From: a virus
Strand: one strand, 5' to 3'
IMG/VR virus record: IMGVR_UViG_3300007513_000952
Span: 39,473 to 103,472 of that record
DNA length: 64,000 nt
The notes beneath the pieces are model-generated. The model saw nothing but the letters and a program-made list of their open reading frames with translations. It searched no databases and was not told the origin of the DNA. Position 1 is the stretch's first letter, and the number at the start of each line of letters is the position of its first letter. Below are positions 42,628 through 57,692 of the stretch, in pieces. The translations under genes and the position numbers were made by a program.

Positions 42628-43625
42628 GAATACTAATATTAGGGGGCTATGGATTTATAGGTAGCCATATTTGTCAACAATTAAAATCAGAAGGACACAC
42701 AATAGGAGTTGTAGATTGTTATCATCAATATTACACGTTTCCAGATTGGGAATACTATCCTGTGCTTAATCAAAGAAAAGAAATTACAAAAACAGATAAA
42801 GAATACATAGGACAAATAGAAAACTTTCAATTTATGGAACAAACATTTGAAGATTTTAAGCCAGACAGAATTATTCATGTTGCTACTTTTCCAAATGCAA
42901 AAATGGTTAAAAGAAATGTGTTAGATGCAACTAATAATATGATTACTGCTACTGCATACATATTAGATCTATGTGTCAAACATAAGGTACAAAAGATAGT
43001 TTATGCTTCAAGCAGTATGGTATATGGAGAGTTTAATAATCAAATACCAGACGAAGAAGTTATACCAGAACCAAATACATTGTACGGCTCATACAAAAAA
43101 CAAGGTGAAACTATGTGCAAGATATGGAACAGAGAGTATGGCTTACCTTATATTATTATGAGACCATCAGCACTTTATGGCACACGTGATACTATATGCA
43201 GAGTCATCAGCCAAATGTTAAAGAGTGTATTAACGACCGGTGATATGACTGTGCAGGGACCTGATAATAAATTAGACTTCTCAAATGTACTGGATGTTGC
43301 CAAATACTTTTCATTAGCTACTACAAACGAAGTACTCAACGAAACATTTAATTGTACTCGTGGTAATGGTAGAAAAATTATAGACGCGGCAGAGATAATA
43401 AAATCAAAAATAGGTACTGGAAATATTATTACTAAACCACATGATTCATTCTATCCAAACAGAGATACACTAAACAGTGATAAAGCAAAAACTATGTTTA
43501 ATTTTAATCCAACAATAGATATAGAAGAAGGTATTCCAAAATATATTAATTGGTTTTTAGAACAACCTTTTTATTTTAATAATTTAAATATTAATCCAAA
43601 GTTTGCTCTGGGTACAAAGACTTAA
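42624..43625 (+). CDS. NAD-dependent epimerase/dehydratase (extended SDR)
   Basis: A 333-residue nucleotide-sugar SDR. The start at 42624 (ATGA overlap) gives MRILILGGYGFIGSHICQQL with the NAD loop. YASSSMVYGE (~residue 132) and LYGSYKKQGETM (Tyr-x3-Lys) are catalytic. Resembles the UDP-glucose epimerase/dTDP-sugar group. Its last 35 bases overlap the 3' end of the minus-strand operon, so the two units converge. Confidence 0.9.
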   Translation: MRILILGGYGFIGSHICQQLKSEGHTIGVVDCYHQYYTFPDWEYYPVLNQRKEITKTDKEYIGQIENFQFMEQTFEDFKPDRIIHVATFPNAKMVKRNVLDATNNMITATAYILDLCVKHKVQKIVYASSSMVYGEFNNQIPDEEVIPEPNTLYGSYKKQGETMCKIWNREYGLPYIIMRPSALYGTRDTICRVISQMLKSVLTTGDMTVQGPDNKLDFSNVLDVAKYFSLATTNEVLNETFNCTRGNGRKIIDAAEIIKSKIGTGNIITKPHDSFYPNRDTLNSDKAKTMFNFNPTIDIEEGIPKYINWFLEQPFYFNNLNINPKFALGTKT

Positions 43626-44922
43626 ACTGCTCTTTAATCCATTCATAATCATAAGAATACATTAATTTATTGTAATCATTTTTGTAGTTGTTGTAATGCT
43701 TCTGACCATCAACTGCACCTTGATATATCCATTTAGCATTCTCACCATTACCCAACGTACTCCATTTTTTAAGTCTGTATTTAGATTCCACTGTTGGTTT
43801 CATTTGTAATAATTTTATAACTTCCCTAAATGATGACCTATAAGCTAACAATGGTGTTTCGTTACAGTTACTAATTGCAGACAATATAGGTACTGAATGA
43901 TGTGCTTGTGACAATGTAAAATCTAAACCTGGCTTTGTTGTTTTCATTACTAGATCTTTATTGTAAAGTATAACGCCTCCCCAACCATATGTTAGATCTA
44001 TCACAGAATTATAACAATCAAATATGTAATGACAAGGGTTCCTTAACCTCTCTGGTTGAAAATCGAATTTAAAACTATCTACTATTTCGCTCTTTGGGAA
44101 CACAGCAAAGAAATATTCTGTTTTACTCATCTGTGCCGCGGCCATGTAAGCAAGTGTCTGTCCTTGTACACCTTTGCTCCATTTAGCTCTAGGAAATTTT
44201 TCTTTTAATTTATTATATCGTTTTTCAGCACTAGGTTCGTCATACGATATAAAAACTATGTCCATTGGATTTATATTATAGTCTAAGTCATAATGTACAC
44301 TTCTTTCTACATCATAAAATTGTTTTAAATTATCTTGCTTTGGTACCAACATAATATCTTTTGTGTTACCCCAAGAATACAGTTTAACGTCTTCCCAGAA
44401 GCTAGGGTAAAAATTTGGCACTTTGTCAGGATCCAATTCTTTATTATACAGCCATGTATAGTATTCTTCACTGTTATTGTATGCGGTAATTGGATCACTT
44501 AATTTAAATGCAATTTTTGGTATTATGTTTTGAAAAAGATTAGCATGAGCATGATAATTAATGTCTTGAAAATCTCGCAAATATTGTATGTTGTACATCT
44601 GTTCTTTAAATTCTTTTGTAGGTATCAACATAATATTACCTTCTTTATTTGTTCCACCGTTAGGGTGCGTGTTGTACCATACGTGTATTTGATTTTTTTC
44701 GTGTTGTTCTGGAATGTAATCTATATCTATAGTTTTCATATTAATGAAACTAGAAAAAAACCAGAAGTACTCTGTCTTAATCTCCCCTACTACACTCTTA
44801 AGTATTTCAAAATAACTCTTAACAAAAGGTACTACCCTAGTGTTAGCAAAAGGACTTGGAAAAAATCCTGTATCTTTAAATCTGACCTGTACACTATCAA
44901 ACGCCATAAAAGTCTCCACCAT
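43591..44922 (-). CDS. glycosyltransferase-like protein, last gene of the operon
   Basis: A 443-residue protein. The C-terminal half starts DIVFISYDEPSAEKRYNKLK and follows GVQGQTLAYMAAAQMSKTEYFF, aligning by eye with the 299-residue protein at 54600-55499 (VFISYAEPNKE, GVKGFDSAHKAAAEKAETDFF). A glycosyltransferase A-type fold is likely, but the D-x-D that the smaller protein has (VDGDN) reads AVFPKSE here, so metal-dependent catalysis may be lost. The N-terminal half (~1-220) is unrecognised. Confidence 0.6.
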   Translation of the reverse strand: MVETFMAFDSVQVRFKDTGFFPSPFANTRVVPFVKSYFEILKSVVGEIKTEYFWFFSSFINMKTIDIDYIPEQHEKNQIHVWYNTHPNGGTNKEGNIMLIPTKEFKEQMYNIQYLRDFQDINYHAHANLFQNIIPKIAFKLSDPITAYNNSEEYYTWLYNKELDPDKVPNFYPSFWEDVKLYSWGNTKDIMLVPKQDNLKQFYDVERSVHYDLDYNINPMDIVFISYDEPSAEKRYNKLKEKFPRAKWSKGVQGQTLAYMAAAQMSKTEYFFAVFPKSEIVDSFKFDFQPERLRNPCHYIFDCYNSVIDLTYGWGGVILYNKDLVMKTTKPGLDFTLSQAHHSVPILSAISNCNETPLLAYRSSFREVIKLLQMKPTVESKYRLKKWSTLGNGENAKWIYQGAVDGQKHYNNYKNDYNKLMYSYDYEWIKEQFKSLYPEQTLD

Positions 44923-44931
44923 TAAGTTTTA

Positions 44932-46395
44932 TCATAGTACTTTTACTCCATATTTGGCTGTCCAGTCTTTACCATCTTTGGTGTCATTTACCATTGGCAT
45001 ACCCTTAATGTTCAAACTGGTGTTTAACAATATTGGACAACCTGTTTTCTTTTTCCATGCTTTAAGTAACTCATAAAACCCTTCGTTATCGCTTTTAGCG
45101 ACGGTTTGCACCCTAGATGTATTATCATAGTGTATTATGGCAGGACAGTCTTTACCATGCGTGTACGTTGCTGTATATTGCATATAAGGGGTGTTTAAAA
45201 CACCTTTAGGTAGCTTAAAATACTCGTTTACATCCTCTTCTAAAATGGCAGGAGCAAACGGTCTAAACTTTTGTCTTCTTTTAATTTGATTTACCATATC
45301 CTTAATTTCCAATCCTCTTGGGTCAGCTAAAAGAGATCTATTACCAAGAGCTCTTGGTCCAAACTCTGCTCTACCATTTGCAACTCCTACCATTTTATTT
45401 TCTGTTAATTCTTTTATAATTTTATCTACTGGATATTCTCCTTCTATGTTATATCCTAAAAATGGACTCTTCCAATCTAAGTGTCTTTGTTCCGATGCCG
45501 CGATACATCCTAACGAACTTCCTGCATCTCCTGGATTAGGTATAATCCAAATGTTATCAAACAATCCCATATTTGCTAATGCAGTGTTTGCCGCACAATT
45601 AAGAGCAACTCCGCCTGCATAAACTAAATTTCTGCTACCATACTTAGATGCTCTATGCCATAAATCTGCAAGACATTCTTCAAGAACTGATTGTATACTT
45701 GCGGCTATATCCATAACATCTGCTTCTGGATGCCAATCACTTAACCCTCTATGTAAATTCTTTTTTAATTTAAAAGGTGATTGTATCACAAAGTCTTCAT
45801 AGATATCATCTTTATATCTTGGTTTTCCATAAGCCGCCATTCCCATTAAAATATATTCTTCTTCTGCAGGTTTTAATCCACAACGTTGTGTAAATGCAGA
45901 ATATAATATGCCCAAACTATGTGGATACTTTATAGTTTCTTTTCGTTCTATCCAAACTTTGTTAGCAGTAGATATTGATACTGTATCCCATTCACCTATT
46001 GCATCCACTGTTAAAATAGTTGCTTCTCGAAATGGTGAAGTAAAATATCCTGCCGCGGCATGACTATCATGATGTTTTACATATTCATCTATTTTAATTT
46101 TAAAATTATCTAAATGCCATTGTGGCATTTCTGTATAACTTAAAGCATCACTGTATTGTCCTGCATAAAATTGTCGTGTTTTCTTTAATAAAGGTTTTTC
46201 GTAATAAACAACTTTGTCAAAAGGACCATATGTCATTGCTTCATTTACTATTCGCCAATTTAAATAAAAATCATTTTTAACTTTTGAATAACGTTCTGCA
46301 TGAGCGGCCCACAATATTTCACCTACACCACTACTATAATCTACTACTGCCATTGCGGCATCGTGATTCATACAGTTTATACCTAATATTCTCAT
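44932..46395 (-). CDS. carbamoyltransferase (NodU/CmcH family)
   Basis: A 487-residue O-carbamoyltransferase of the NodU/CmcH/TobZ type, which uses carbamoyl phosphate and ATP to carbamoylate a hydroxyl, often on a sugar. It opens MRILGINCMNHDAA and has the conserved KHHDSHAAAGYF (~residue 108), LVYAGGVALNCAANT in the Kae1-like core, and EFGPRALGNRSLLADPR (~347) of the C-terminal domain. Slightly shorter than NodU (about 560). Overlaps its upstream neighbour by 4 bases. Confidence 0.93.
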   Translation of the reverse strand: MRILGINCMNHDAAMAVVDYSSGVGEILWAAHAERYSKVKNDFYLNWRIVNEAMTYGPFDKVVYYEKPLLKKTRQFYAGQYSDALSYTEMPQWHLDNFKIKIDEYVKHHDSHAAAGYFTSPFREATILTVDAIGEWDTVSISTANKVWIERKETIKYPHSLGILYSAFTQRCGLKPAEEEYILMGMAAYGKPRYKDDIYEDFVIQSPFKLKKNLHRGLSDWHPEADVMDIAASIQSVLEECLADLWHRASKYGSRNLVYAGGVALNCAANTALANMGLFDNIWIIPNPGDAGSSLGCIAASEQRHLDWKSPFLGYNIEGEYPVDKIIKELTENKMVGVANGRAEFGPRALGNRSLLADPRGLEIKDMVNQIKRRQKFRPFAPAILEEDVNEYFKLPKGVLNTPYMQYTATYTHGKDCPAIIHYDNTSRVQTVAKSDNEGFYELLKAWKKKTGCPILLNTSLNIKGMPMVNDTKDGKDWTAKYGVKVL

Positions 46396-46946
46396 CTTTT
46401 TAATTTAAACCATTTTTTTGCTTGTTTTAAATAATTTTTCCACCATTTATTTTCAATTGTATATTCAAAATTTTGTGAGGTTTTGTTTACTTGTAATTCT
46501 TTAGCACCATTCCTTAAATGAAATTCTCGTGCCATATCTGTTAATGGTGATAATGTAACTAATCGATTTAAATGATTTGATTTTTTAATCATTTTAAAAA
46601 CTTCTTGTATTATTCTTTTTCCACCACCTTTTTTCTTTGACCAAACTGTATAAGCAATAGCAATATTGCCTTGTATTCCTGCTCTATGAGTTGCCTGTAT
46701 AAAAGCATCTTTACTCATTAAATCTAATTCTTCTATCGTCTTTGGTATTTCGTGTGTAAAGGCAAAGCACATAACCGCAACAATATCTTTGCCAAGTTTT
46801 AAACCATATATTTTTCTACCCCAATCTTTTCTAAACTTATTATCCAATTCAGGCCTCACAGGATCTTCTTTGAAATGACAATATTTCATTTCAACTAACT
46901 CCACTTTTTTAAGCCAATCAAATGTTAACTTTTTAATTTTTTTCAT
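46392..46946 (-). CDS. GNAT-type acetyltransferase-like protein
   Basis: A 184-residue protein. The central strand VAVMCFAFTHEIPKT is followed by NIAIAYTVWSKKKGGGKRII, with the basic Gly-rich loop expected for CoA binding, and LTDMAREFHLRNGAKEL near residue 140. These fit a GNAT fold. Acceptor unknown; a sugar amine in this operon is plausible. Starts and stops overlap both neighbours. Confidence 0.65.
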   Translation of the reverse strand: MKKIKKLTFDWLKKVELVEMKYCHFKEDPVRPELDNKFRKDWGRKIYGLKLGKDIVAVMCFAFTHEIPKTIEELDLMSKDAFIQATHRAGIQGNIAIAYTVWSKKKGGGKRIIQEVFKMIKKSNHLNRLVTLSPLTDMAREFHLRNGAKELQVNKTSQNFEYTIENKWWKNYLKQAKKWFKLKR

Positions 46947-47230
46947 TTGTTTACTTTTATTTCTTCACTCTCTCCATAATACGGAGATGCAAGAGAGTGT
47001 GGTTTTATTATAAATCCTCTTATATTATACATTTTAATTTGTGCTAATAAATTTCCTGCTTCTGCTAAAGCAAACCAAAATGCATTTTTTTCATAGAGAT
47101 AAATCCAACTAAACTTCCTAGGATATTTCTTACCGTTAATATAAACTTTCCAACCATTAACAATATTATAATTTCCCCATTTATGTTTAATATTAAACCT
47201 TCGACTAAATTTTTTACATTTAATTTCCAT
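46943..47230 (-). CDS. small hypothetical protein
   Basis: A 95-residue basic, aromatic protein (NIVNGWKVYINGKKYPRKFS, then LYEKNAFWFALAEAGNLLAQ). No family recognised. Overlaps the GNAT gene by 4 bases. Confidence 0.5.
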   Translation of the reverse strand: MEIKCKKFSRRFNIKHKWGNYNIVNGWKVYINGKKYPRKFSWIYLYEKNAFWFALAEAGNLLAQIKMYNIRGFIIKPHSLASPYYGESEEIKVNK

Positions 47231-47237
47231 TTAAATC

Positions 47238-47342
47238 TTATTTGTATATAAACGGGTCTTTTTTCTTTAGTTCTTTTAATCTTTTACGATAAGCAAGTTC
47301 TTGCTTAATCTTATTGATTATTTTTTTAATCCATCCGAACAT
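47238..47342 (-). CDS. 34-residue basic microprotein
   Basis: A short frame encoding 34 residues: it starts MFGWIKKIINKIKQELAYRK and ends in KKKDPFIYK. A strong AGGAGG ribosome site precedes the ATG at 47342, and it begins within the SGNH gene (17-base overlap), as other genes of the operon do. An amphipathic basic helix is likely. I recall short phage proteins ending DPFIY, but the family and role are unknown. It could be a radical SAM substrate, but lacks Cys, Ser and Thr. Confidence 0.5.
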   Translation of the reverse strand: MFGWIKKIINKIKQELAYRKRLKELKKKDPFIYK

Positions 47343-48147
47343 TTTTTCCTCCTATTATTTCATTAAACTTAGGTTGCATTAATTTTACAGCATCTCTGTG
47401 TGCTTTGTCTAGCGGGTGTGTTGTACCACGTTCATATTCATTCAATAATGCCCATTGATTAAATCCCATACAACGATCACCAAAGAAAAACCATCTGGTT
47501 AAATCTATTTCTTTATGTAATGCTAACATAAATGGATCTTGATCTTTGTGGTTATCAAAGTCTCTGTAAAACAAACTATTATCAGCAAGTGTAAACATAT
47601 ATGGAATTTTCTTTTTTTCTAAAATATTCTGTAACCAAATAATAGATTTCCAGCTCAAATATGTTTCATGATATTCATTAGCGGCGTGTTTATAAATTGC
47701 TTCAGCAAATGGTTTAACTCCTGTATTAATTAATAACTCTTCTCTTCTTTTCCATTGTTCTTGTTGTGCTTCGGATCCTACTAACGCAGTATGTCGCTCT
47801 TCACTTGCTATTTTAGTGTCCCAGGGAGATATTGTTGCCCAACGAGTTTTTTCTAAATTTCTATGTCGTGGCATCGCCCAATCATAACGAGATAAAAAAC
47901 TCCACATTACAACAACACAACCAATATCTGTTGTATTTGCTACTGCATTAAAAACTCTTCTTGCAATTCCTGGATTTCCTGTACCAGGTCTTGCTGTACA
48001 AATATAATTGTCTGGTTGACAATAATTTTCTTCTTGACTTAAAACATATGCCCAACTTTGCTTAGATGGTGTTTTACCTTCATTATCATCAGACAATTCG
48101 TGTCCAAATGTAAAACTACAACCTCCTGCTATAAATTTTTTATTCAT
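47326..48147 (-). CDS. SGNH/GDSL-hydrolase-like protein
   Basis: A 273-residue protein. Block I reads AGGCSFTFGHEL (the nucleophile Ser about residue 11), and the C-terminal block reads GTTHPLDKAHRDAV, with the acid/His pair of SGNH enzymes adjusted to T-H-P. Others of this family add or remove O-acetyl groups on glycans. Overlaps the radical SAM gene upstream by 8 bases. Confidence 0.7.
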   Translation of the reverse strand: MNKKFIAGGCSFTFGHELSDDNEGKTPSKQSWAYVLSQEENYCQPDNYICTARPGTGNPGIARRVFNAVANTTDIGCVVVMWSFLSRYDWAMPRHRNLEKTRWATISPWDTKIASEERHTALVGSEAQQEQWKRREELLINTGVKPFAEAIYKHAANEYHETYLSWKSIIWLQNILEKKKIPYMFTLADNSLFYRDFDNHKDQDPFMLALHKEIDLTRWFFFGDRCMGFNQWALLNEYERGTTHPLDKAHRDAVKLMQPKFNEIIGGKNVRMD

Positions 48148-49306
48148 ATATTTGTAATACCTTATTTAAAAGTGGAAAAACATCTCCAAAATCTTCTTTT
48201 CTATACTTGTCTGTTTGTAATATCCTTGCTTTTCTTTGCTCTCTAATTTCTTCTGAATCTCTATGTGCTGAATTCATAAATCTTAATGTGGGTTGAAAAT
48301 CTGTAAGCATTGAGTATCTACTATTAACAATATTTTTAACCTGTTTAGGTAATGTTTGTATGTTAAAATAATCTGGATCAAAACAGGTATTAACATAAAA
48401 GAATTTAGGTTGATATTGTGCTACCCATAATGAAATTTTTGCTAAACTAAAAATATTAAAAATACTAATTGTTGTACAAATTTGAAACTCCATATTATGA
48501 GTTTGATATGTTTTAAACTCTACAAGATTATGATTAACTTCTCTCCAGTTAGCAGGGTGTCTTTGATATTGAAACTGCTCTCCTACATCATCAATACTAA
48601 ATGCTATTTCAACTCTTTTAAAATATCTCCACAGGTCAAATATTTCTCTAGGCGGCAATTGTGTTCCATTTGTGTTGTAGTGTATATCTATATTTTTTGC
48701 ATAACCTTTTTCAACACAATGCATTAATATTTTAAAATGATCTCGTATCATAAAAGGTTCACCACCTGTAAACTCAAAATATTCTGCATCTGCTAAACAT
48801 TCTTGTATGTCATCAAAAAATGTAGGATGTTTTTTTGGCCAACCACCTTCTTTTAGATTTTTTCTTGCGACTGGATTTTCTCCATAATCTAATTCTTCCT
48901 GTGCCCACTTGCTGGAACTCCAACTGCCACATATTCTACATTTTAAATTACATACGTTGCCCAACTTAAAATCTATAAACTTTAGTGTTGGCTCGCTATT
49001 AGGGGTCCAGTCTTTTAAACTGTTACGCATTTTATAAATTGAATTCATACGTTTTGATGTTTTTCCAACACTTTCTTCTTGCCAACAACTTTCACAACTT
49101 AAAGGACGTTCTCCATTTTTAAATTTTTGTCTTAATTTTTTCATATATTCAGAACTTTGTATTGTTTTTAAATCAGTTTCATATACTTTAACATTGGGTA
49201 TATTTCCTTTATATAAACAACAAGGCGAAGCACCTCCATTTACATCTACTTCTAAATGTGTCCACGGTAATGGACATATATTTGATTTTATATACTTTTC
49301 CACCAT
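48140..49306 (-). CDS. radical SAM protein with N-terminal twitch domain (copy 6)
   Basis: A 388-residue radical SAM enzyme. Twitch part: NICPLPWTHLEVDVNG, SPCCLYKG and CESCWQEES. Core: CNLKCRIC near residue 114 and TGGEPFM near 170. Its start overlaps the gene upstream by 19 bases. In the middle of the minus-strand operon. Confidence 0.87.
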   Translation of the reverse strand: MVEKYIKSNICPLPWTHLEVDVNGGASPCCLYKGNIPNVKVYETDLKTIQSSEYMKKLRQKFKNGERPLSCESCWQEESVGKTSKRMNSIYKMRNSLKDWTPNSEPTLKFIDFKLGNVCNLKCRICGSWSSSKWAQEELDYGENPVARKNLKEGGWPKKHPTFFDDIQECLADAEYFEFTGGEPFMIRDHFKILMHCVEKGYAKNIDIHYNTNGTQLPPREIFDLWRYFKRVEIAFSIDDVGEQFQYQRHPANWREVNHNLVEFKTYQTHNMEFQICTTISIFNIFSLAKISLWVAQYQPKFFYVNTCFDPDYFNIQTLPKQVKNIVNSRYSMLTDFQPTLRFMNSAHRDSEEIREQRKARILQTDKYRKEDFGDVFPLLNKVLQIYE

Positions 49307-50634
49307 TCCAATACCTCTGGTTCTTTTATTAATATTTTTGTAATATCTGTTCCACGAATTTTATCTAAACGCTCGCATTCTTCTTTTCCTGATTTCCAAC
49401 CTTTCATACAAGTTTCTTTATCATAACGTTGTTCATTAGTAGGATGATTTTTCAAATCGTCCAATCCTTCTAAAAATGCCATGTTAAACACTGTAGGTTT
49501 TTCGTTTTTAACTTTGTCTTTAACTTTGTCTACCATTTTGTGTAATAATTTTTGAGGCATAAACAAAGGACTCATGAATACATCAGGACTAAAAGTAAAT
49601 ACTTTTTTACATAATAACGGTATTTTCAAATCTTTTTGTAATTCATACATATTTTCTAAGTCAAATAATCCAGGAAGTGTTACAGTAAGATCTAATTGTA
49701 ATTGTCTTGGATGCCTTACGAATTTTTTTGCATATTGCATATTAGAATACCATTCGTTATATTTTAAACCTGTTCTAATATATTCACCAATTTCGCCAGT
49801 TCCGTCTATTGATGCATTTATTTGCCAATCTTGAAATTTTGAAAGAATATCATCAAATAAATTTAATTTAAAAAATTTAATTCTACTCATATTAGAATTA
49901 TACCTAACATAAACTTGATTTGCATATCCTAATTCTACTACACGTTGCATGGCAATCCAGTGTATTTTCCACATTAACGGTTCTCCACCGCACCAATAAA
50001 ACTCTCTAATAGTTTTCTCTTCAATTGCTTTTGTAAATTCTTTAACCATTGTTTGATCATGGAACTTTTGCAATATTGCTTGTACATCTTTCCTACCCCA
50101 AATTCTATATTTTGTGTATAGTTCAGGTTTGCGATGTTTTTTATTTTCCGCCTCCCAACTACTACTCAACATATCACCACACATTCTACAACTAAAATTA
50201 CAAAGATTAGAAAATCTATAATCCCAACTAACAACTTTCATTGTTGTTACACCGGTGTCATCTGTTGACTCAAATGCTTTATCTATATCGTTTCCGTAAA
50301 ATCTGTTGAAGTGCTGTCTATACACCTGTGCATTAAGCAGTTTATGATTACAAGTAGCACATTGTGGTATTTCTTCTCCGGCCATTAATTTAAGCCTAAC
50401 TGATTTCATATATTCAGAATTCCAATGCTCATCTAAACTTTTTAAATTAATTTTACCTGAACTTATATTACTCTTATAATCTTTTGGTAGTGTGTCAATA
50501 TATTGTTTAAAATTATTGGAATCTTCACGACTTGCACAACACAATCGCCTTTCCATTTGAGGTGACATATAAGTATGCACCCATGGCGCCATACAGAATG
50601 TTTTATTACCTTCGTTTGGTTTAATTTTTTTCAT
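49288..50634 (-). CDS. radical SAM protein with N-terminal twitch domain (copy 7)
   Basis: A 448-residue radical SAM enzyme. The start at 50634 (MKKIKPNEGNKTFCMAPWVH) is chosen because a longer frame upstream runs far into the previous gene; this start overlaps it by only 14 bases. Core: CNFSCRMC and CGGEPLM, the twitch part has RLCCAS and CATCNH. Larger than copies 1-6. Confidence 0.85.
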   Translation of the reverse strand: MKKIKPNEGNKTFCMAPWVHTYMSPQMERRLCCASREDSNNFKQYIDTLPKDYKSNISSGKINLKSLDEHWNSEYMKSVRLKLMAGEEIPQCATCNHKLLNAQVYRQHFNRFYGNDIDKAFESTDDTGVTTMKVVSWDYRFSNLCNFSCRMCGDMLSSSWEAENKKHRKPELYTKYRIWGRKDVQAILQKFHDQTMVKEFTKAIEEKTIREFYWCGGEPLMWKIHWIAMQRVVELGYANQVYVRYNSNMSRIKFFKLNLFDDILSKFQDWQINASIDGTGEIGEYIRTGLKYNEWYSNMQYAKKFVRHPRQLQLDLTVTLPGLFDLENMYELQKDLKIPLLCKKVFTFSPDVFMSPLFMPQKLLHKMVDKVKDKVKNEKPTVFNMAFLEGLDDLKNHPTNEQRYDKETCMKGWKSGKEECERLDKIRGTDITKILIKEPEVLEWWKSI

Positions 50635-51913
50635 ATTTGTCAAATAATTCTTTCCATTCTGGAAACGTATCAGTAAACGTTTCGTCTCTAATTTTATCAT
50701 ATTTCTTTGTTTCTCTGAAAAACAATTCAAGTTTATCTGTTTTATCTCTTCTAAAAAGATAATCCAAAGCACTTTCATATCCTTTAGTTGCACGAGTAAG
50801 ATGATCTTGTGCTTTTAACCATTCTATATGTTTTTCGTATTTTTCTTTTATTTGTTGCTTAAATTCTTCTGGCAAAAGATCCATACGTTGCCATAACGGA
50901 AACTGCAATAAATTAAAATTAAAATCTTGTGGTTTAATCAATCCTTGCTCTACCCAATTCTTATGAAAATCTACAACGTGTAATGCATTTACTAATCCTA
51001 CTGTTGAACTAATATAAAAATCAACTTGTGGACAAACTACTAACATACGTTTTCTATTTGCTACAATATCTTTCCATACAGTTCCTTTACGCATTAATTC
51101 TGCTCTTGGTCCTTCTGCATCTAAACTTGCTCCTATAGATACTGAATCAAATTTATTCCATAATTCAAATATATCTGTACCTTTAAATTTGGACTTACTA
51201 AAATTTGTATTATAAATTAACCTAACATGATACATTTTACGTTTGTCTAATTCTTTTAAAATTCTTAGATGTTCTTCCATTATAATTGGTTCACCACCAG
51301 CAAAATAAAACTGTTCCACATGATCAAATTGTTCTAATAATTGATCCCATATATCATTAGAAGTCCTACCAACTTTCATAATTTTTGCATGGGGTGGTGG
51401 ACTACCTGTTAATTTTTTGTGATCTTCGTACCAATTAGAACTAAACCATGTACCACAACTTCTACAAGCCATGTTACACAAATTACTAAAACGTATATCC
51501 CAATATTTTATTACAAAGTCTGCTGAACCATCTGACTGTGTAGTATTAACCATATCAATATTATGTCCAAAATGTTTGTTTGAACTTAAACGTAAACTAA
51601 AGAATCCAGATTTTTCTTGATCATAACACTTAAAACATTCACGTGATGGTTTGTTTGCTAACATATTCAAACGCATTTGTTTCATTTTATCACCATTCCA
51701 AACTTCAGCCATTGATTGTTTATTAAGATCACCAACTGGCAATTTGTCTAAAGCAAAACAACAAGAATATGCTCTGCCATCTGGAAATGCGTGAAGGTGC
51801 ATCCATGGCAACATACAAAAATTGTCACTTTCTATTAATAACTCCTTTTGTTTAGGAGTCATATCTTTTATTTTTAATTTCTCAGGCTCTTTTGCTCCGT
51901 ACTCATATGCCAC
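50621..51913 (-). CDS. radical SAM protein with N-terminal twitch domain (copy 8)
   Basis: A 430-residue radical SAM enzyme. Twitch part: NFCMLPWMHLHAFPDGRAYS, then CCFALDKLPVGDL and CFKCYDQEKS. Core: CNMACRSC and AGGEPII. Similar in plan to copy 7. Overlaps both neighbours by 14 and 11 bases. Confidence 0.87.
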   Translation of the reverse strand: MAYEYGAKEPEKLKIKDMTPKQKELLIESDNFCMLPWMHLHAFPDGRAYSCCFALDKLPVGDLNKQSMAEVWNGDKMKQMRLNMLANKPSRECFKCYDQEKSGFFSLRLSSNKHFGHNIDMVNTTQSDGSADFVIKYWDIRFSNLCNMACRSCGTWFSSNWYEDHKKLTGSPPPHAKIMKVGRTSNDIWDQLLEQFDHVEQFYFAGGEPIIMEEHLRILKELDKRKMYHVRLIYNTNFSKSKFKGTDIFELWNKFDSVSIGASLDAEGPRAELMRKGTVWKDIVANRKRMLVVCPQVDFYISSTVGLVNALHVVDFHKNWVEQGLIKPQDFNFNLLQFPLWQRMDLLPEEFKQQIKEKYEKHIEWLKAQDHLTRATKGYESALDYLFRRDKTDKLELFFRETKKYDKIRDETFTDTFPEWKELFDKYEKN

Positions 51914-53246
51914 GATACCATTCTCCTATTATTGGGAAAGTTTTTTCAAAATCTTTTCCTCTTCGTTTGTCATATTGACTATAAAATAACTTAAAGTCTT
52001 TTTGTAATTTTTCTCTTGCGGCCGCTCCAGCGTGTGGTGTTTTAACAACATCTAAATAATCAATTAATCTTTGTGTATGATTAATTTCCATTTCTTCTAA
52101 ATGTTGTTGATTATTTTTTAAAAATTTTTCAATATCCCCTTTAAACTTATTACGTAAATCATCTGGCAATACCAAAGGTGATTGAAAACTTGGAAACCTT
52201 AAAATATTAAGTGTATAATTTATTGTTGGTCCGTAAATCTTACTTGCATTTTTTAACCATACAATTTTTTCTAAAAATTCAGCCAGTGATTCTAAACACA
52301 ATGCATTGATTGTACACATATTGTGAATTTCTGCTGGTACTTTATCAACCATCATGTGTAATACTTGACTATACCAATCTCCATAATTTAATCCGTCTCT
52401 AATATATTCTGCTTGTCTAAATGTTGCTTCATTACTAGTGTACAAGTGAAATCTATCAAAGTTTTTTAATTTCTTTTTAAAACGTTCTATAATATCTTGT
52501 TTTGCACCTAAATTAGAATTAATTGCAATACGCATATGAGGATTCATTTTGTGTCCTTGTGTTTCTATCCAATCTAACAGTCTCCATAAATTAGGCGACA
52601 TCATAGGTTCACCGCCTGTTATTCTTAATTCATCTAAACTTTTATGCAAATCTGTTTCCCACCAAGTGTAAAATGCTTCAACATAAGGATTAGTTTCATC
52701 TTTTTTATAAGGTTCTGCTGATTCATGACTGTGAGTAAAATGATTTCTTCCGTCTGTTGTCATATCTGTGTATGGACCTTTTTGTTTAATGTCTCTTGCC
52801 CATGTTGTGCTAAATGCAGGATTGCAATAAGAACAAGCAAAATTACAAGTTCTGTCAAATGCTATTTCTAATGTTTTTAAATTCCAATCAATTTCGTGAC
52901 TCTCAGTAAATGCTTCTTCTAAATGACCACTGTCAAATATTTTTGATTTGTATACCCTATCTGATATAGCATCTTTGCCAATGTCTTCTATTTTCCAACA
53001 ATATTCACAACCTGCAGGTCTTTCACCACACTGCATTTGTTTACGTTGCTCCTTCTTTTGCCATGTATTGTGTATTGCAGATGGATTTGTTTTTATTTCT
53101 TCTAAATCTATTTTGTGTGGTAATGGGTGATGACAACTTGTAGTCATACCACTGCCTAACCATATAGTTGCATTGAACCATTTAGCACCACAAAAACTTG
53201 CTGACTTTGTATCTAATATTTGTTTTTTATATTCTAAATCTTTCAT
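51903..53246 (-). CDS. radical SAM protein (copy 9), pair member
   Basis: A 447-residue radical SAM enzyme. Core: CNFACSYC and TGGEPMM. The N-terminal part differs from copies 1-8: FCGAKWFNATIWLGSG, then TSCHHPLPHKID and CEYCWKIED. The same layout occurs in copy 10 directly upstream (CLAKW, SCYHPPLHEID, CSYCWKMED), so the two form a duplicated pair of a distinct subfamily. ATGA overlap between them. Confidence 0.87.
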   Translation of the reverse strand: MKDLEYKKQILDTKSASFCGAKWFNATIWLGSGMTTSCHHPLPHKIDLEEIKTNPSAIHNTWQKKEQRKQMQCGERPAGCEYCWKIEDIGKDAISDRVYKSKIFDSGHLEEAFTESHEIDWNLKTLEIAFDRTCNFACSYCNPAFSTTWARDIKQKGPYTDMTTDGRNHFTHSHESAEPYKKDETNPYVEAFYTWWETDLHKSLDELRITGGEPMMSPNLWRLLDWIETQGHKMNPHMRIAINSNLGAKQDIIERFKKKLKNFDRFHLYTSNEATFRQAEYIRDGLNYGDWYSQVLHMMVDKVPAEIHNMCTINALCLESLAEFLEKIVWLKNASKIYGPTINYTLNILRFPSFQSPLVLPDDLRNKFKGDIEKFLKNNQQHLEEMEINHTQRLIDYLDVVKTPHAGAAAREKLQKDFKLFYSQYDKRRGKDFEKTFPIIGEWYRGI

Positions 53247-54613
53247 GCGTTTTTACACTCCTGCCAAAATTCTGACATTTCTGGGAATACTGTTTCAAAG
53301 TTTGTTAAGCGTCTACGATCATGTTCGTTAAAAAATGCGTAAAAGTTCTTTTTAGTTTGCGTACTAGTGTCTGCATTTTTACGCCAATAAGCTAAATTGC
53401 GTAACATTTTTTGAATCTCAAAGTCTTTGAATATGTGTAATCCTTTATCTTCTCCAGAATTTTCTCTCATATATTCTATGTTGGCTTCATGTATTGCTTG
53501 ATATGCCTCAGGCAATAATGTTATCTGTTGCCATGCAGGCTGTCTAAGCAATGGTATATCAAACCATACTCGTTGATACGTTTTACTATGTCGTTTTCGT
53601 AATTCTAAAATACCTTCTAATAACTTATCCAAACTTGTAACACTAAGATTATTGTATGTGATTATAAAAGTAACTGAATTACGTACTGGTATACGATCCA
53701 AAAATTCATCTACATTATCCCACATACGATTAAATTCTAATCCATTTCTAATATATTCTGCTTGTTTACCCCATGCATCAACTGAAACAAATTGCATGAA
53801 ATGTTCAACTTTCTCCTCAATACAGATTTTCTTAACCATATCAAAATATTTGTTTTTTAATTTGTTATTAGGTGGACACATATTACTGGTTACGTTTAAG
53901 TGTAAGTCTTGTTTTGGATTATTAATAACGTATTCAAATACTTTATATGTGTTATTGTCCATCATAGGTTCACCACCTGTCATACGAAAATGTTTTAAAT
54001 TTTTATATAATGTAGGCCACCACTTCCAAAAAGCAGTAACATAAGGATTATCTTCTTTATGTGGTATTGGACGTTTTCTTCCTTGAAAGTGTTCAGGTGC
54101 ATTGTGGGGAGGAGATGTTGGATATTGGCCATATACAGCAATCTCCTTCCCCCACGTTGTCGAGAATTGTGGTGAGCAATAAGAACACTTAAAATTACAA
54201 GCATTATTAAAGTTTACTTCCACATATCTCGGTGTCCAACGTTCGTCCATTGGATTTTGTTTAATTGCTGTAAAGTCTTGCATGGCCCATGGTTCACCAG
54301 AACGATAATGTCTATCTGACATTTCGCCTGTGTCTTCCATTTTCCAACAATATGAACAACCCTCAGGCCGTTCTCCTTTAAGCATTTGTTGTCTTTGATT
54401 TAATTTTTCTGCTGTATTATGTAGTGCCGCAGGATTATCTTCTAATTTTGTTGCATCTATTTCATGTAAAGGTGGATGATAGCAACTGTTTGTTAATCCA
54501 GTAGGCAAGTGTAATGAAACTTGATTCCATTTTGCCAAACACATAGTTGGTGAAACATTATCAAGTAAACTTTTAGCCAACTCTGCATCTGCTTTATAAT
54601 TACTTGTACTCAC
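53243..54613 (-). CDS. radical SAM protein (copy 10), pair member
   Basis: A 456-residue radical SAM enzyme, paralogue of copy 9. Core: CNFKCSYC and TGGEPMM. N-terminal part: CLAKWNQVSLHLPTG, SCYHPPLHEID and CSYCWKMEDTG. Both members keep the conserved S-T-T-W after the cluster motif. Overlaps the glycosyltransferase-like gene upstream by 14 bases. Confidence 0.87.
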   Translation of the reverse strand: MSTSNYKADAELAKSLLDNVSPTMCLAKWNQVSLHLPTGLTNSCYHPPLHEIDATKLEDNPAALHNTAEKLNQRQQMLKGERPEGCSYCWKMEDTGEMSDRHYRSGEPWAMQDFTAIKQNPMDERWTPRYVEVNFNNACNFKCSYCSPQFSTTWGKEIAVYGQYPTSPPHNAPEHFQGRKRPIPHKEDNPYVTAFWKWWPTLYKNLKHFRMTGGEPMMDNNTYKVFEYVINNPKQDLHLNVTSNMCPPNNKLKNKYFDMVKKICIEEKVEHFMQFVSVDAWGKQAEYIRNGLEFNRMWDNVDEFLDRIPVRNSVTFIITYNNLSVTSLDKLLEGILELRKRHSKTYQRVWFDIPLLRQPAWQQITLLPEAYQAIHEANIEYMRENSGEDKGLHIFKDFEIQKMLRNLAYWRKNADTSTQTKKNFYAFFNEHDRRRLTNFETVFPEMSEFWQECKNA

Positions 54614-55499
54614 GGTCTTGTACTCCTGTGTTGAATGGGCGTGGCATTACAAATTTAAAAAAATTGCTTTGGTCTTCATCAAAATTTTCACAAGGTATAT
54701 CTATTCTTTGCTTAAGACTATTGCCATATACTTCTAAATCTTCATCTACTTTATCTTCAACTATACCATTTGCAAATAAATCTGCCATTTTATCTAACTC
54801 TCTAATTTGTATAAATTCGGTTGAATCCACAGTAGTTGAATAACAACCCATTCTTGCTCCTAACATAGCATACTTGCCATACTCAACATCTGCACCTACA
54901 GTCATCCACGTGGTTAGTATTCTAAGATTGCTACCTTGTATAACACGCATAAAATTTTGTGGTGGTATATGTTTACCTTGATTTAAACTCATCTTAACAC
55001 CTTCTCTATAACCTGCTATCCAAGCCTGTTGTGGTGTTGCATTAATAACAGTAGTTGAATAACAATTATGTAAATTTTCATGAGGTACTGTCCAACAAAA
55101 ATCTATTTCTGCTTTTTCATCTTTTGCGTTTTCGTGTGTTTTCATTTGCAAACAAGTTTCACGTGGCCATCCTACCAAACCACCATTGCCATATACTAAA
55201 TTATTAACATTATTTCTTGCTCGCCAACGATGTACGGCTTTTGGATCTGTTTTAGACCAATCTAAAGTTTGTAATAAAAAACTCTCATCTATAATATTGT
55301 CTCCATCAACTGAAATAAAAAAATCTGTTTCTGCTTTTTCTGCCGCGGCTTTGTGTGCTGAATCAAATCCTTTAACTCCGTCAACACGCTTTGCCCACGG
55401 CACTTTGCTTAACAAGTCTGCCCAATTCTCTTCTTTGTTTGGTTCAGCATAACTTATAAAAACAAAGTCTAAATCCGAGACTCTTACTCTATCCGCCAT
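54600..55499 (-). CDS. glycosyltransferase-like protein (GT-A fold, D-x-D)
   Basis: A 299-residue protein. DLDFVFISYAEPNKEENWAD starts the domain; ETDFFISVDGDNIIDESFL near residue 65 contains the metal-binding D-x-D; YGNGGLVGWPRETCLQM follows. Fits a GT2-like GT-A fold. It resembles the C-terminal half of the operon's last gene (43591-44922), which lacks the D-x-D. Overlaps both neighbours. Confidence 0.7.
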   Translation of the reverse strand: MADRVRVSDLDFVFISYAEPNKEENWADLLSKVPWAKRVDGVKGFDSAHKAAAEKAETDFFISVDGDNIIDESFLLQTLDWSKTDPKAVHRWRARNNVNNLVYGNGGLVGWPRETCLQMKTHENAKDEKAEIDFCWTVPHENLHNCYSTTVINATPQQAWIAGYREGVKMSLNQGKHIPPQNFMRVIQGSNLRILTTWMTVGADVEYGKYAMLGARMGCYSTTVDSTEFIQIRELDKMADLFANGIVEDKVDEDLEVYGNSLKQRIDIPCENFDEDQSNFFKFVMPRPFNTGVQDREYK

Positions 55500-55780
55500 A
55501 CATACCCTTCCTTACCAATATTTTTAACCCAAAAAGGATTTTTTTTATAAAATTTAACTCCGTTATCTGCCTTATGCATTAATGGTTGTCGCTGTTCTAC
55601 AGGTATACGTTTTTTTCTTACAACTTCTCCTTTTTTCCACGTATAATTTTCCTCACCTGCTCTTGTTATTTCTAAATAACGTTCTAATGTTACAACTATA
55701 CTTTGACCTTCGATAGTAACCACGTGAGGTTGTCTTTCTTTTGGCTTAAAATTTTCTAATGCTTCAAAAAATCCTGGCAT
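55484..55780 (-). CDS. small hypothetical protein
   Basis: A 98-residue basic protein (QPHVVTIEGQSIVVTLERYL, then FYKKNPFWVKNIGKEGYVWR). No family recognised. The 16- and 17-base overlaps with its neighbours point to translational coupling. Confidence 0.5.
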   Translation of the reverse strand: MPGFFEALENFKPKERQPHVVTIEGQSIVVTLERYLEITRAGEENYTWKKGEVVRKKRIPVEQRQPLMHKADNGVKFYKKNPFWVKNIGKEGYVWRIE

Positions 55781-56564
55781 TTAATTCCTCTGGTAATGAT
55801 TTGTTATAATAATGAAATATTCTTGATTGCTTATATCCACCTACATAAACTTTTTCATCTATTTGCATTGGATATAGATATTGATCGTTAATAAATGCTT
55901 GGGTTAATCCATTTATTGCATTTTTATTATGCATAAAATTAAACCAATCATATTTTATACGTAATTCATTTAATGGATCTTGTATTTTAAGTGCAAGAGC
56001 ATATACAACATCTGTTGATGATTGCTCATCATGACAATTTATTAAAAATTTATTCCGTACAACAGGCCAATTTAACATAATGCCTTTACATAAATTATAA
56101 AATGTTTGTGCTTGTCTACTTTTTCTAAAATAAGTTAATCCGTTATATACATCTGGCAAATTATTTGTAACAAATAATTTTCTATAAGGTGTATGTTCAA
56201 TAATTGTGTCTCTATAACATCTTACATGATAAGAAAAAACCATATTATGTTGATGCAAATAATTCCACCACCAATCTGTGTTACTTGTAAACAACATATC
56301 AGCTTCTAATTTAATTGTGTGCTTAAAAGGTGTTAAATTAAAAACTTGCCATTCGTTGTTTAACTTCCATTCCTGATCTTTGCTATAATCTTGTTCTAAT
56401 ACAACTACATGATCAAATTCTTCATGATCAACTAGTTTATCAGTTATAATACATACTTTATTTTGCCTATTATGCTTTTTAATTGACTTTGCAAGACGTT
56501 TACTTAACTCTATATAATCAGTTGTGGAGTTATTCAATGCAAACCAAACATATCCTCTATCCAT
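55764..56564 (-). CDS. glycosyltransferase-like protein (GT8-like pattern)
   Basis: A 266-residue protein. It starts GYVWFALNNSTTDYIELSKR, then VCIITD, and TIKLEADMLFTSN near residue 85, the place of the donor/metal site (E-x-D instead of D-x-D). This resembles the gene upstream and the GT8-like nucleotide-sugar fold. Sugar and acceptor unknown. Overlaps its upstream neighbour by 8 bases. Confidence 0.6.
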   Translation of the reverse strand: MDRGYVWFALNNSTTDYIELSKRLAKSIKKHNRQNKVCIITDKLVDHEEFDHVVVLEQDYSKDQEWKLNNEWQVFNLTPFKHTIKLEADMLFTSNTDWWWNYLHQHNMVFSYHVRCYRDTIIEHTPYRKLFVTNNLPDVYNGLTYFRKSRQAQTFYNLCKGIMLNWPVVRNKFLINCHDEQSSTDVVYALALKIQDPLNELRIKYDWFNFMHNKNAINGLTQAFINDQYLYPMQIDEKVYVGGYKQSRIFHYYNKSLPEELNARIF

Positions 56565-57321
56565 TTACAAACTCCTTATCCATAACATGAACATCTTGTT
56601 CTTCAACCATATTAACTTTATTATTGTACTTGAATGTTATTGTTTTATCCGACATATCTAATACATCTACTTCATGTGATATCATAGCCATTGGTGTTGG
56701 AATAAAATTTTTATGAGAATTAAATCCATTTAACTGATGTAATGCTATTGCAAAAGCAAAATCATTTCTATAATTTTTATATTTTATACGATACAAATTT
56801 CTATAATGAGCATAGTATTGTTGTATGTGTTGAATTAAATTAAAAACTTGTTCTGCAAATACTGATTTACGAAAAATAGTAACCGTTGCCCAAACTATTG
56901 GTACTGTTGATTCATTTTTACCTTCAATCATATTTTCACCTGTTAAATCATATACGTTATTGTGTAATAAAAAATCATACTTTGTATTTGCATACGTTAA
57001 TAGATTATTAGTAAAAACAAAGTAATCACAATCCATAAGAATTGTAGTATCATAAGGTGAGTGTTTGTATGCTAAACTTCTTTCTAAATTATGCCAAGCA
57101 ATACTTTGACCTCTATAACTTCTTCTATTGCCTACTTTATTATCAACAATCTTGTAATTAATCATACCTAAAGGTTTAAACTTTTTGTAAGTTTCAAAAT
57201 TAGTAACAATAGTAATTTCTAATTTTAGATATTTTCGTATTTGTGCTACACAACGTTCAGCTAACAAGTGGTAGTTAACTTCAGGCGTATTGAAACAATA
57301 CATTAATACACCTGTTGTCAT
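56557..57321 (-). CDS. glycosyltransferase-like protein (GT8-like pattern)
   Basis: A 254-residue protein. It opens GVLMYCFNTPEVNYHLLAER, then ITIVTNFETYKKF, and TTILMDCDYFVFTNN near residue 90 with D-x-D. Together these fit a nucleotide-sugar-binding GT-A domain. The gene downstream shares the plan, so the pair may be duplicated. Overlaps its upstream neighbour by 4 bases. Confidence 0.65.
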   Translation of the reverse strand: MTTGVLMYCFNTPEVNYHLLAERCVAQIRKYLKLEITIVTNFETYKKFKPLGMINYKIVDNKVGNRRSYRGQSIAWHNLERSLAYKHSPYDTTILMDCDYFVFTNNLLTYANTKYDFLLHNNVYDLTGENMIEGKNESTVPIVWATVTIFRKSVFAEQVFNLIQHIQQYYAHYRNLYRIKYKNYRNDFAFAIALHQLNGFNSHKNFIPTPMAMISHEVDVLDMSDKTITFKYNNKVNMVEEQDVHVMDKEFVNG

Positions 57322-57638
57322 TTTAACCTTTTATTCTTTAGATCCTCGTGTAGTTGATGGTATGAATTTAATGTTTCTTGATTTCTTTCAATCAATATTC
57401 TCAAAAATTCATCTGGATCTATTATGTGACACGGATTATCATTAGTATCTAACATATAAAACTCCTTAGAGTGTGCTTTAAATGTTTGAACTACATTTAT
57501 GGTATCAGCGTCTGCACGAAATAATCTACCATTGTATGCTATAATCTGTCTGGATTTTAACTTTTCCAGAGCATTCTTTTTAATTTGGTTTAGATCGTGT
57601 GCTAGATCAGAATAGTTTTTGAGAGTGCCAATATCCAT
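57318..57638 (-). CDS. small protein, first gene of the minus-strand operon
   Basis: A 106-residue charged protein (IGTLKNYSDLAHDLNQIKKN, then IIAYNGRLFRADADTINVV). No family recognised; the HDLNQIKK and NRLF-like parts look DNA- or protein-binding, without proof. Its ATG begins 6 bases after the -10 of a perfect promoter, so its transcript is predicted to be leaderless. Confidence 0.55.
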   Translation of the reverse strand: MDIGTLKNYSDLAHDLNQIKKNALEKLKSRQIIAYNGRLFRADADTINVVQTFKAHSKEFYMLDTNDNPCHIIDPDEFLRILIERNQETLNSYHQLHEDLKNKRLK

Positions 57639-57644
57639 AACTGT

Positions 57645-57673
57645 ATTATACAGTTAATTATGGACTGTGTCAA
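57645..57673 (-). promoter_or_regulatory. perfect sigma70 promoter of the minus-strand operon
   Basis: Read on the minus strand: TTGACA (57673-57668), a 17-base spacer, TATAAT (57650-57645). Both hexamers are perfect consensus. The ATG at 57638 starts 6 bases after the -10. This is the best-matching promoter seen for the 16 genes downstream. Confidence 0.85.
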
Positions 57674-57692
57674 TGTGGTAAAATGTTTTTTA

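What the first reader, a model, noticed from the sequence alone, without database searches (positions are those of the whole stretch)
43591..57673. A 16-gene, single-promoter modification operon mixing glycosyltransferases with five radical SAM enzymes and a carbamoyltransferase
Seen: sixteen minus-strand genes, nearly all overlapping at start/stop codons, behind one perfect TTGACA-17-TATAAT promoter at 57645-57673. The order is small protein, three GT-like genes with a small gene among them, five radical SAM, SGNH-like, 34-residue microprotein, small protein, GNAT, carbamoyltransferase, GT-like. Known: these families (GT, NodU-type carbamoyltransferase, SGNH, GNAT) build and decorate glycans. 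Inference: the phage encodes a whole glycan-like product decorated by radical chemistry. The end product and target (host surface, fibres, DNA or a peptide) are unknown. I know no described phage pathway with this content.
Basis: partly seen in the sequence, partly recalled or inferred. Interest (0 to 1): 0.85.

Follow-up and report, generated by a model that had tools for sequence, protein, structure and literature searches.

The report
Phage sugar-modifying operon with partner microprotein
Uncultured ocean viruses of bacteria carry a conserved set of about sixteen genes that probably builds and decorates a sugar structure with unusual radical chemistry, and one tiny 34-residue protein in it turns out to travel with a carbamoyl-transferring enzyme, much as another tiny protein does in bacteria.

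Summary
In detail: sixteen minus-strand genes (43591-57638), 13 of 15 junctions overlapping, behind one perfect sigma-70-type promoter that is conserved in place. Core gene order is collinear in 52 of 53 dereplicated viral loci (one of the 53 is a near-identical copy). All five radical SAM enzymes belong to one family of unknown reaction, N_Twi_rSAM. C and E have predicted GT-A folds; B and Z are their homologs.

The new point is the 34-residue microprotein. It ends in DPFIYK and lies upstream of the carbamoyltransferase in 40 of 40 operon loci that show that gene, and in 59 of 80 loci found by the coded tail alone. In bacteria the same enzyme family has a DUF5989-like neighbour ending APFIYTLF or similar (63 of 80 loci; 17 of 17 chosen genomes hold DUF5989). 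Best reading: an envelope-glycan module whose carbamoyltransferase has a PFIY-tailed partner; substrate and partner role are inferred. DNA or nucleotide modification stays a live rival: elsewhere the pair sits with replication genes (31 of 42 loci). Radical-SAM-rich T4-like ocean viruses, and glycosyltransferases beside tail fibres, were already in print.

The parts
57645..57673 (-). sigma-70-type promoter TTGACA-17-TATAAT, -10 box six nt before the first ATG (leaderless start inferred), overlapped by a 9+9 nt inverted repeat at 57638-57656
   Evidence: conserved at fixed spacing in relatives
57318..57638 (-). A: 106-aa protein, no family above cut-off
   Evidence: in 42 of 53 dereplicated loci
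56557..57321 (-). B: glycosyltransferase-like, homologous to C
   Evidence: B-C 22% identity, E=6e-4; its own fold was not predicted
55764..56564 (-). C: GT8-like glycosyltransferase fold
   Evidence: pLDDT 91; glycogenin Z 15.8, rmsd 3.7 over 204 residues
55484..55780 (-). D: 98-aa protein, fast-evolving
   Evidence: 39 of 53, median identity 33%
54600..55499 (-). E: GT-A fold, GT2-like glycosyltransferase candidate with invariant DGD
   Evidence: pLDDT 86; best Z 10.0, rmsd 3.0 over 140 residues (B4GALNT1)
53243..54613 (-). R1: N_Twi_rSAM radical SAM
   Evidence: 334.4 bits, cut-off 170; CX3CX2C
51903..53246 (-). R2: N_Twi_rSAM radical SAM
   Evidence: 294.6 bits
50621..51913 (-). R3: N_Twi_rSAM radical SAM, used as bait for relatives
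   Evidence: 403.1 bits
49288..50634 (-). R4: N_Twi_rSAM radical SAM in a variable slot
   Evidence: 314 bits; R4 is the best hit in 15 of 53 loci, in many others R3 scores best at that place with 25-33% identity
48140..49306 (-). R5: N_Twi_rSAM radical SAM
   Evidence: 359 bits
47326..48147 (-). S: SGNH-like protein (motif by eye only)
   Evidence: no family; 41 of 53 loci
47238..47342 (-). u34: 34-aa microprotein ending DPFIYK; proposed carbamoyltransferase partner
46943..47230 (-). m95: 95-aa protein, seen only in this virus and its near-identical copy
   Evidence: 1 of 53
46392..46946 (-).
44932..46395 (-). K: NodU/TobZ-type O-carbamoyltransferase
   Evidence: PF16861, PF02543; NovN, GdmN, TobZ; phrog_1601
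43591..44922 (-). Z: 443-aa protein whose middle is homologous to E
   Evidence: 30% identity over 164 residues, E=1e-16
57693..58661 (-). T322: gene just upstream, syntenic; virion role guessed from its neighbour
   Evidence: 46 of 53; no family
58666..60315 (-). T549: tail-fibre-like structural gene, syntenic
   Evidence: phrog tail fibre and virion structural hits; 46 of 53
40053..43625 (+). convergent sugar genes: DegT aminotransferase, GFO/IDH/MocA oxidoreductase, PIG-L deacetylase, epimerase
   Evidence: homologs anywhere in the held locus in 38 (DegT) and 43 (epimerase) of 69 operon loci

Best explanation
This is a probably early-expressed glycan-modification module of an uncultured marine T4-like phage. 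Host RNA polymerase reads it from one conserved promoter. GT-A glycosyltransferases (C, E and their homologs B, Z) transfer sugars, the N_Twi_rSAM enzymes remodel the glycan or a sugar precursor by radical chemistry, and carbamoyltransferase K puts a carbamoyl group on a hydroxyl from carbamoyl phosphate and ATP (as TobZ does). The microprotein u34 is K's dedicated partner: its amphipathic N-terminal helix is proposed to sit on the membrane and its DPFIYK tail to dock on or activate K. It would do for phage K what the DUF5989 protein (tail APFIYTLF; taken from recall to be the SxtK family) may do for bacterial carbamoyltransferases. The most likely target is the host envelope glycan, changed during infection, with the variable R4 slot altering the product. 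Shown: gene content, order, promoter, enzyme families, and genetic linkage of u34 with K and of DUF5989 with bacterial K. Inferred: physical contact, membrane site, substrate, timing and benefit.
For: Conserved order and promoter. N_Twi_rSAM membership of all five. GT-A folds and homology B-C, E-Z. Sugar genes convergent with the operon, homologs in many relatives. u34 upstream of K in 40 of 40 dereplicated operon loci with K, one of them the near-identical copy. Only 17 of the 80 show radical SAM genes in the held stretch, though some stretches are short. u34 is under purifying selection: pN/pS 0.076 over 44 distinct DNAs of the last 17 codons. Bacterial K: DUF5989-like proteins in 63 of 80 loci on K's strand against 4 on the other; 17 of 17 chosen genomes hold DUF5989. 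PFIY tails are otherwise rare: 59 of 28,702 viral ORF ends, all DPFIYK, and 50 of 14,334 bacterial ORF ends, 49 with the DUF5989-like end pattern. In a quick tree of 134 Ks all 42 DPFIY-partnered Ks lie in one clade of 48 (SH-aLRT 100). [quoted passage not shown] PMC8670742 (passages) reports that carbamoyltransferases of unmodified contigs neighbour glycosyltransferases.
Against: No substrate is known. u34 and DUF5989 share only the four tail residues in a profile comparison (probability 20%, E 0.0011), and u34 matches no DUF5989 model. If DUF5989 is anchored N-in, its tail would face the periplasm, unlike a cytosolic u34 tail. In 31 of 42 dereplicated loci without radical SAM genes in the held stretch, the pair lies with replication primase and helicase genes, which fits nucleotide or DNA work as well. 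Some K have no PFIY partner: 8 loci of a 48-49% clade (a diverged tail was seen in two of seven looked at), 43 of 44 loci with cultured-phage or cyanophage-type K and 17 of 80 bacterial loci. Four DPFIYK tails end a Cys-rich protein with no K in the held sequence. u34's ribosome site is good but no better than those of C and R3.
Confidence: 0.5

Rival explanations
1. The module decorates the virion, above all the tail fibres encoded just upstream, with a sugar-based structure that mediates or varies host binding.
For: T549 and T322 are each found before the operon in 46 of 53 dereplicated loci, also in loci with only about 50% identity in R3.
Against: The operon has its own sigma-70-type promoter, unlike late genes of T4-like phages (recalled), so it is probably made early. 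Linkage alone does not name the acceptor.
Confidence: 0.2
2. K, with u34, carbamoylates a modified base or nucleotide, and the glycosyltransferases and radical SAM enzymes hypermodify phage DNA.
For: A phage-type carbamoyltransferase acts on 5-hydroxymethylcytosine (PMC8670742, passages). The u-K pair lies with primase and helicase genes in 31 of 42 other loci.
Against: No thymidylate-synthase-type gene in the own record, in 7 of 9 chosen operon records, one of them a longer near-identical copy, and in 15 of 16 chosen other u-K records, although the published co-occurrence is with such genes; all may be fragments. The operon holds sugar-acting folds and lies by sugar genes.
Confidence: 0.2
3. 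u34 is a ribosomal peptide precursor that the five radical SAM enzymes cross-link and the other enzymes glycosylate and carbamoylate.
For: Small conserved gene in a radical SAM operon; SPASM/twitch-type enzymes often mature peptides (titles and abstract starts in the listing); one locus has a DPFIYK gene directly before a radical SAM gene (L120).
Against: u34 has no cysteine. The u-K pair occurs in many loci that show no radical SAM gene. The 17-residue tail is nearly fixed (9 peptides among 44 distinct DNAs), as expected of a binding part more than of a varied product.
Confidence: 0.08

Closest known systems
Host recognition cluster of pelagimyophages (PMC7029224, passages read)
   Same: Glycosyltransferases, radical SAM cassettes and tail fibres together in marine T4-like phages; envelope O-chain change proposed there.
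   Different: That region is described as non-syntenic and hypervariable; here a fixed core order is kept in 52 of 53 dereplicated loci. The paper's main text has no occurrence of 'carbamoyl'.
T4-like ocean virus genome TARA_ERS488813_N000010 with 12 radical SAM genes (PMC5332604, passages read)
   Same: Many radical SAM genes in a T4-like ocean virus; here eleven above the family cut-off in 103 kb.
   Different: There discussed with Fe-S assembly genes; 'carbamoyl' and 'glycosyl' do not occur in its main text.
SxtI-SxtJ-SxtK carbamoylation set (PMC2679770 passages) and DUF5989 (Pfam PF19451)
   Same: NodU-type carbamoyltransferase with a small neighbour (SxtK gene 165 bp in the paper; DUF5989 proteins of about 50 aa with a PFIY tail). 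That SxtK is a DUF5989 protein is recalled; SxtK itself was not looked at.
   Different: Typical phage microproteins are 27-47 aa, show no clear transmembrane segment by eye, end DPFIYK, and the four scanned are outside PF19451.
5-hydroxymethylcytosine carbamoyltransferase of phage contigs (PMC8670742, passages read)
   Same: NodU/TobZ-type carbamoyltransferase in phage-like DNA.
   Different: Its neighbours are nucleotide enzymes including thymidylate synthase homologs; none in this record.

Membership tests
N_Twi_rSAM (NCBIfam NF033640) | score above the curated cut-off over the full length | tested here: met
   R1-R5 294.6-403.1 bits, cut-off 170; 11 of 12 matches in the record above cut-off
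N_Twi_rSAM (NCBIfam NF033640) | intact CX3CX2C radical SAM motif | tested here: met
   five of five
N_Twi_rSAM (NCBIfam NF033640) | a known reaction | not testable with these tools
   the family name gives architecture only; R3 has no solved relative by sequence
NodU/TobZ O-carbamoyltransferase | Carbam_trans_N and Carbam_trans_C domains | tested here: met
   3.4e-42 and 8.6e-53
NodU/TobZ O-carbamoyltransferase | HxxxH metal motif of the Kae1-like domain (motif recalled) | tested here: met
   H108 and H112 invariant in the 12 aligned proteins
DUF5989 / SxtK | match to PF19451 | tested here: not met
   u34 and three other phage microproteins do not match, two bacterial ones do; no match in the record
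DUF5989 / SxtK | PFIY tail beside a carbamoyltransferase | tested here: met
GT8 glycosyltransferase | GT-A fold of the glycogenin type over the whole chain (C) | tested here: met
   Z 15.8, rmsd 3.7 over 204 residues; activity not testable
GT2 glycosyltransferase | GT-A fold (E, and Z by homology) | tested here: inconclusive
   best Z 10.0 over 140 residues, nucleotidyltransferases of the same fold score 8.2-9.2; Pfam GT2 below cut-off
5hmC DNA carbamoylation system | co-occurring thymidylate-synthase-type hydroxymethylase | tested here: not met
   none in the 103-kb record; none in a longer near-identical record (137.6 kb); both may be fragments
RiPP cluster | precursor peptide tied to the radical SAM maturase | tested here: not met
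   the microprotein occurs in many loci that show no radical SAM gene
Pelagimyophage host recognition cluster | location between VrlC and gp14 | not tested
   only the neighbouring tail-like genes were checked

The most novel reading that the evidence does not exclude
NodU/TobZ-type carbamoyltransferases of bacteria and phages often work with a dedicated PFIY-tailed micro-partner that places or switches on the enzyme. The phage DPFIYK microproteins are a second, membrane-span-free class of that partner, typically 27-47 residues long. In this operon the pair works inside a radical-SAM glycan pathway new to phages.
Probability: 0.45. Interest if true: 0.75.

Novelty: new variant of a known kind. 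Interest (0 to 1): 0.62.

Why it matters
It gives a concrete, testable handle on two open questions: what the many radical SAM enzymes of ocean phages do, and what the orphan small DUF5989 proteins beside carbamoyltransferases do. A minimal phage partner of 27-47 residues with a nearly fixed tail is much easier to test than a membrane protein. If the module changes the host envelope, it would explain why large marine phages keep a fixed sugar-chemistry operon next to tail-fibre genes.

Tried and rejected
Fusion of the partner with K, which would have hinted at contact: the 1014-aa frame with DUF5989 is a long open frame in GC-rich DNA with no K seen in it. In a scan of the held loci for long frames with a PFIY motif, no K-length frame ends in one; a 1518-aa frame in L134 has it inside, and two 170-aa frames (L169, L189) end in DPFIYK and were not followed up. 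The 185-aa frame of L352 was not examined beyond its length and tail.

A first motif search missed DUF5989 genes with variant tails, and one with an ordinary tail for a reason I did not trace. It was replaced by a profile built from the same loci, so PF19451 itself was used as the independent check. The 17 genomes were chosen from 80: eight where the first search had found the gene and nine where it had not. Whether the 14 control genomes have a K was not checked.

A first codon test covered only 16 loci through a wrong pattern and was redone.

The 42 loci are those of the 45 that had neighbouring ORFs in its printed list; at least one of them (L137) is an operon contig cut short.

Homology of u34 with DUF5989 by profile comparison: not shown. 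Weak Pfam hits of small genes (PriX, Dad3 and others) were rejected as below cut-off; a 133-aa neighbour in L274 matches SxtJ below cut-off. Rfam and tRNA scans of the window found nothing. tblastn of u34 in phage records found nothing, but the low-complexity filter may have hidden it. At E 1e-5, E had no match in 50,697 phage records, R3 matched two Vibrio phages and R5 three records.

Papers: nine searches. 'DUF5989' occurs in no held paper and 'DPFIY' in none of the eight listed of 42. No paper describing this operon appeared in these listings, but most subscription journals and bioRxiv are not held. Papers were seen as listings, or as passages for PMC8670742, PMC2679770, PMC7029224, PMC7150976 and PMC5332604; none was read whole.
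Full report
WHAT IS THERE. The window is bases 39473-103472 of a 103,472-base IMG/VR virus record. Sixteen minus-strand ORFs fill 43591-57638; 13 of 15 junctions overlap. The only perfect sigma-70 site in 42000-60000 is at 57673-57645, just before the first gene. The window holds a second perfect site at 41058, so a perfect match alone is weak evidence. Relatives decide: in 39 distinct upstream regions (from 51 loci) 32 keep TATAAT exactly and 34 keep TTG at the fixed -35 place. The mean best score is 9.87 of 12 against 7.40 in shuffles and 6.38-7.35 upstream of eleven other genes. The -10 box ends six bases before the first ATG, so a leaderless message is likely (inference). A 9+9 inverted repeat overlaps it.

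CONSERVATION. R3 as bait gave 69 viral loci. After dereplication 53 remain, one of them (L005) a near-identical copy of the window; 52 of 53 are collinear for the core genes found in them (R4 and the 95-aa gene were left out of that test). The exception, L067, rests on a weak extra S hit. Loci with about 50% identity in R3, several in records of 214-338 kb, keep the order. Variable parts are the R4 slot (R4 is the best hit in 15 of 53), D (median 33% identity), N (27 of 53, against 40 for K) and the 95-aa gene (1 of 53, L005). Some loci are cut by contig ends, so these counts are lower bounds. T549 and T322 are each found before the operon in 46 of 53.

WHICH VIRUS. DNA polymerase is closest to those of large phages (Sinorhizobium phage Phosso 50.6%, Agrobacterium phage Atu_ph07 45.5%), and T4-type baseplate-connector and tail-fibre profiles match. 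The record is probably a fragment of a larger genome. The host is unknown.

ENZYMES. All five radical SAM proteins score far above the cut-off of N_Twi_rSAM, an architecture family without an assigned reaction in its name, and keep CX3CX2C. The record has eleven such genes above cut-off, and nine long records, one a near-identical copy, have 7-12 matches each. C is a GT8-type fold (pLDDT 91, glycogenin Z 15.8) and B is its weak homolog (E 6e-4). E has a GT-A fold (pLDDT 86, best Z 10.0 over 140 residues) with invariant DGD, and Z is its homolog; nucleotidyltransferases of the same fold score 8.2-9.2, so E's activity stays open. K is a NodU/TobZ-type carbamoyltransferase. DegT, oxidoreductase, PIG-L and epimerase genes converge on the operon's end; DegT homologs occur in 38 and epimerase homologs in 43 of 69 held operon loci. 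Among 50,697 phage records E has no match, R3 matches two and R5 three.

THE MICROPROTEIN. u34 (47238-47342) is MFGWIKKIINKIKQELAYRKRLKELKKKDPFIYK: nine net positive charges, no cysteine, an amphipathic start (2.6% of shuffles of its first 18 residues reach its moment). Its Shine-Dalgarno match is 5 bases or more in 89% of 44 loci, against 28% of 40 for K, but 90% of 48 for C and 94% of 47 for R3. In operon loci the tail reads DPFIYK wherever the pattern DPFIY was found. The last 17 codons vary at all 17 third positions while pN/pS is 0.076 over 44 distinct sequences. In 40 of 40 dereplicated operon loci that show K, a DPFIYK gene lies upstream of it on the same strand.

Of the 80 listed, 59 have K downstream on the same strand and none on the other; 41 of these K frames start within 300 bases. 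Of the 21 without K, 11 have under 1.1 kb left. At least three of the 80 are contigs of the operon set. Only 17 of the 80 show radical SAM genes, though some stretches are short. Going the other way, from K, 57 of the 68 loci with a K frame of 300 codons or more have such a partner. Those without include a 48-49% clade (L255-L261, L263), in which two of seven looked at carry a diverged overlapping peptide, and loci with too little sequence. Cyanophage-type and cultured-phage K lack it in 43 of 44 loci; the exception is the single-cell record of Marine virus AG-345-D19, whose peptide ends DPYIYEE.

THE BACTERIAL COUNTERPART. A DUF5989-like protein of about 50 aa, ending APFIYTLF or similar, lies on K's strand within the held stretch in 63 of 80 (28 upstream, 35 downstream) against 4 on the other strand. 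Seventeen chosen genomes (8 where a first motif search had found the gene, 9 where it had not) all hold PF19451, whereas none of 14 well-known control genomes does. PFIY tails are otherwise nearly absent from ORF ends in both sets. In a quick tree of 134 carbamoyltransferases all 42 with a DPFIY partner fall in one clade of 48, and all 57 with an APFIY-type partner lie outside it; sampling was by similarity and by the tail, and some branches are long. A published account says SxtI acts with SxtJ and SxtK (PMC2679770, passages); that SxtK belongs to DUF5989 is recalled. Profile comparison of the two partner families aligns only PFIY with 20% probability, so common descent is not shown; a shared role is the better-supported claim.

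HOW IT PROBABLY WORKS. Shown: the gene set, order, promoter, families and linkages. Inferred: an early transcript; sugar transfer by B, C, E and Z; radical remodelling by R1-R5; carbamoylation by K with u34 as membrane tether or activator through its tail; and a changed host envelope that benefits the infecting phage, as was proposed for pelagimyophage glycosyltransferases (PMC7029224, passages).

AGAINST THIS READING. In 31 of 42 dereplicated loci without radical SAM genes in the held stretch the u-K pair lies with a primase and a replicative helicase, and a carbamoyltransferase from a phage-like contig acts on 5-hydroxymethylcytosine (PMC8670742, passages). Thymidylate-synthase-type genes, the partners in that case, are missing in the own record, in 7 of 9 chosen operon records and in 15 of 16 chosen other u-K records, but these may be fragments; the same paper notes that carbamoyltransferases of unmodified contigs neighbour glycosyltransferases. 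If DUF5989 is inserted N-in, its tail would not face the cytoplasm. Four DPFIYK tails end a Cys-rich protein with no K in the held sequence; three of them were looked at and their neighbours resemble phage head genes by eye only.

NOVELTY. Radical-SAM-rich T4-like ocean genomes (PMC5332604) and mixed glycosyltransferase and radical SAM regions by tail fibres (PMC7029224) are in print. The fixed module and the phage PFIY partner did not appear in nine searches. I rate it a new variant of a known kind, interest 0.62.

Noticed in passing
window 61015-62610 (-): Glycine-rich tail-like protein whose C-terminal part (from GCFLEGTLITMEDGSTKPIEEI) looks like a Hint (hedgehog/intein-type) domain; by eye, not tested.
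   Followed up: no
L083, L107, L140 (also L076): A Cys-rich protein (CSCGHTSHC..CEHCNCP) also ends in DPFIYK, with no carbamoyltransferase in the held sequence; neighbours of the first three resemble phage head genes by eye.
   Followed up: partly
window 14195-15367, 17641-18795, 20955-22091, 24984-26162, 33966-35123 (+): Five more N_Twi_rSAM genes on the plus strand, with an epimerase, GTP cyclohydrolase I and IMP dehydrogenase among them; one more lies at 38466-39518 of the record.
   Followed up: partly
window 28389-30235 (+): Two tandem paralogous genes, 65% identical, without a Pfam family.
   Followed up: no
window 35197-38248 (+): MoxR-type AAA ATPase and, one gene further, a DUF2201 metallopeptidase/VWA protein, a chaperone-like set.
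   Followed up: no
L101, L092, L126 and similar: In another phage group the microprotein-carbamoyltransferase pair lies with primase and replicative helicase genes; L101 also carries a DNA polymerase III alpha gene.
   Followed up: partly
L120 6205-7440 (-): A DPFIYK microprotein stops directly before a radical SAM gene, with no carbamoyltransferase in the held sequence.
   Followed up: no
window 57638-57656: Inverted repeat TAACTGTAT/ATACAGTTA over the -10 box; relatives show other dyad-like sequences there by eye, possibly an operator or a hairpin at the message start.
   Followed up: partly
L169 and L189: 170-codon frames that end in DPFIYK, much longer than the usual microprotein.
   Followed up: no
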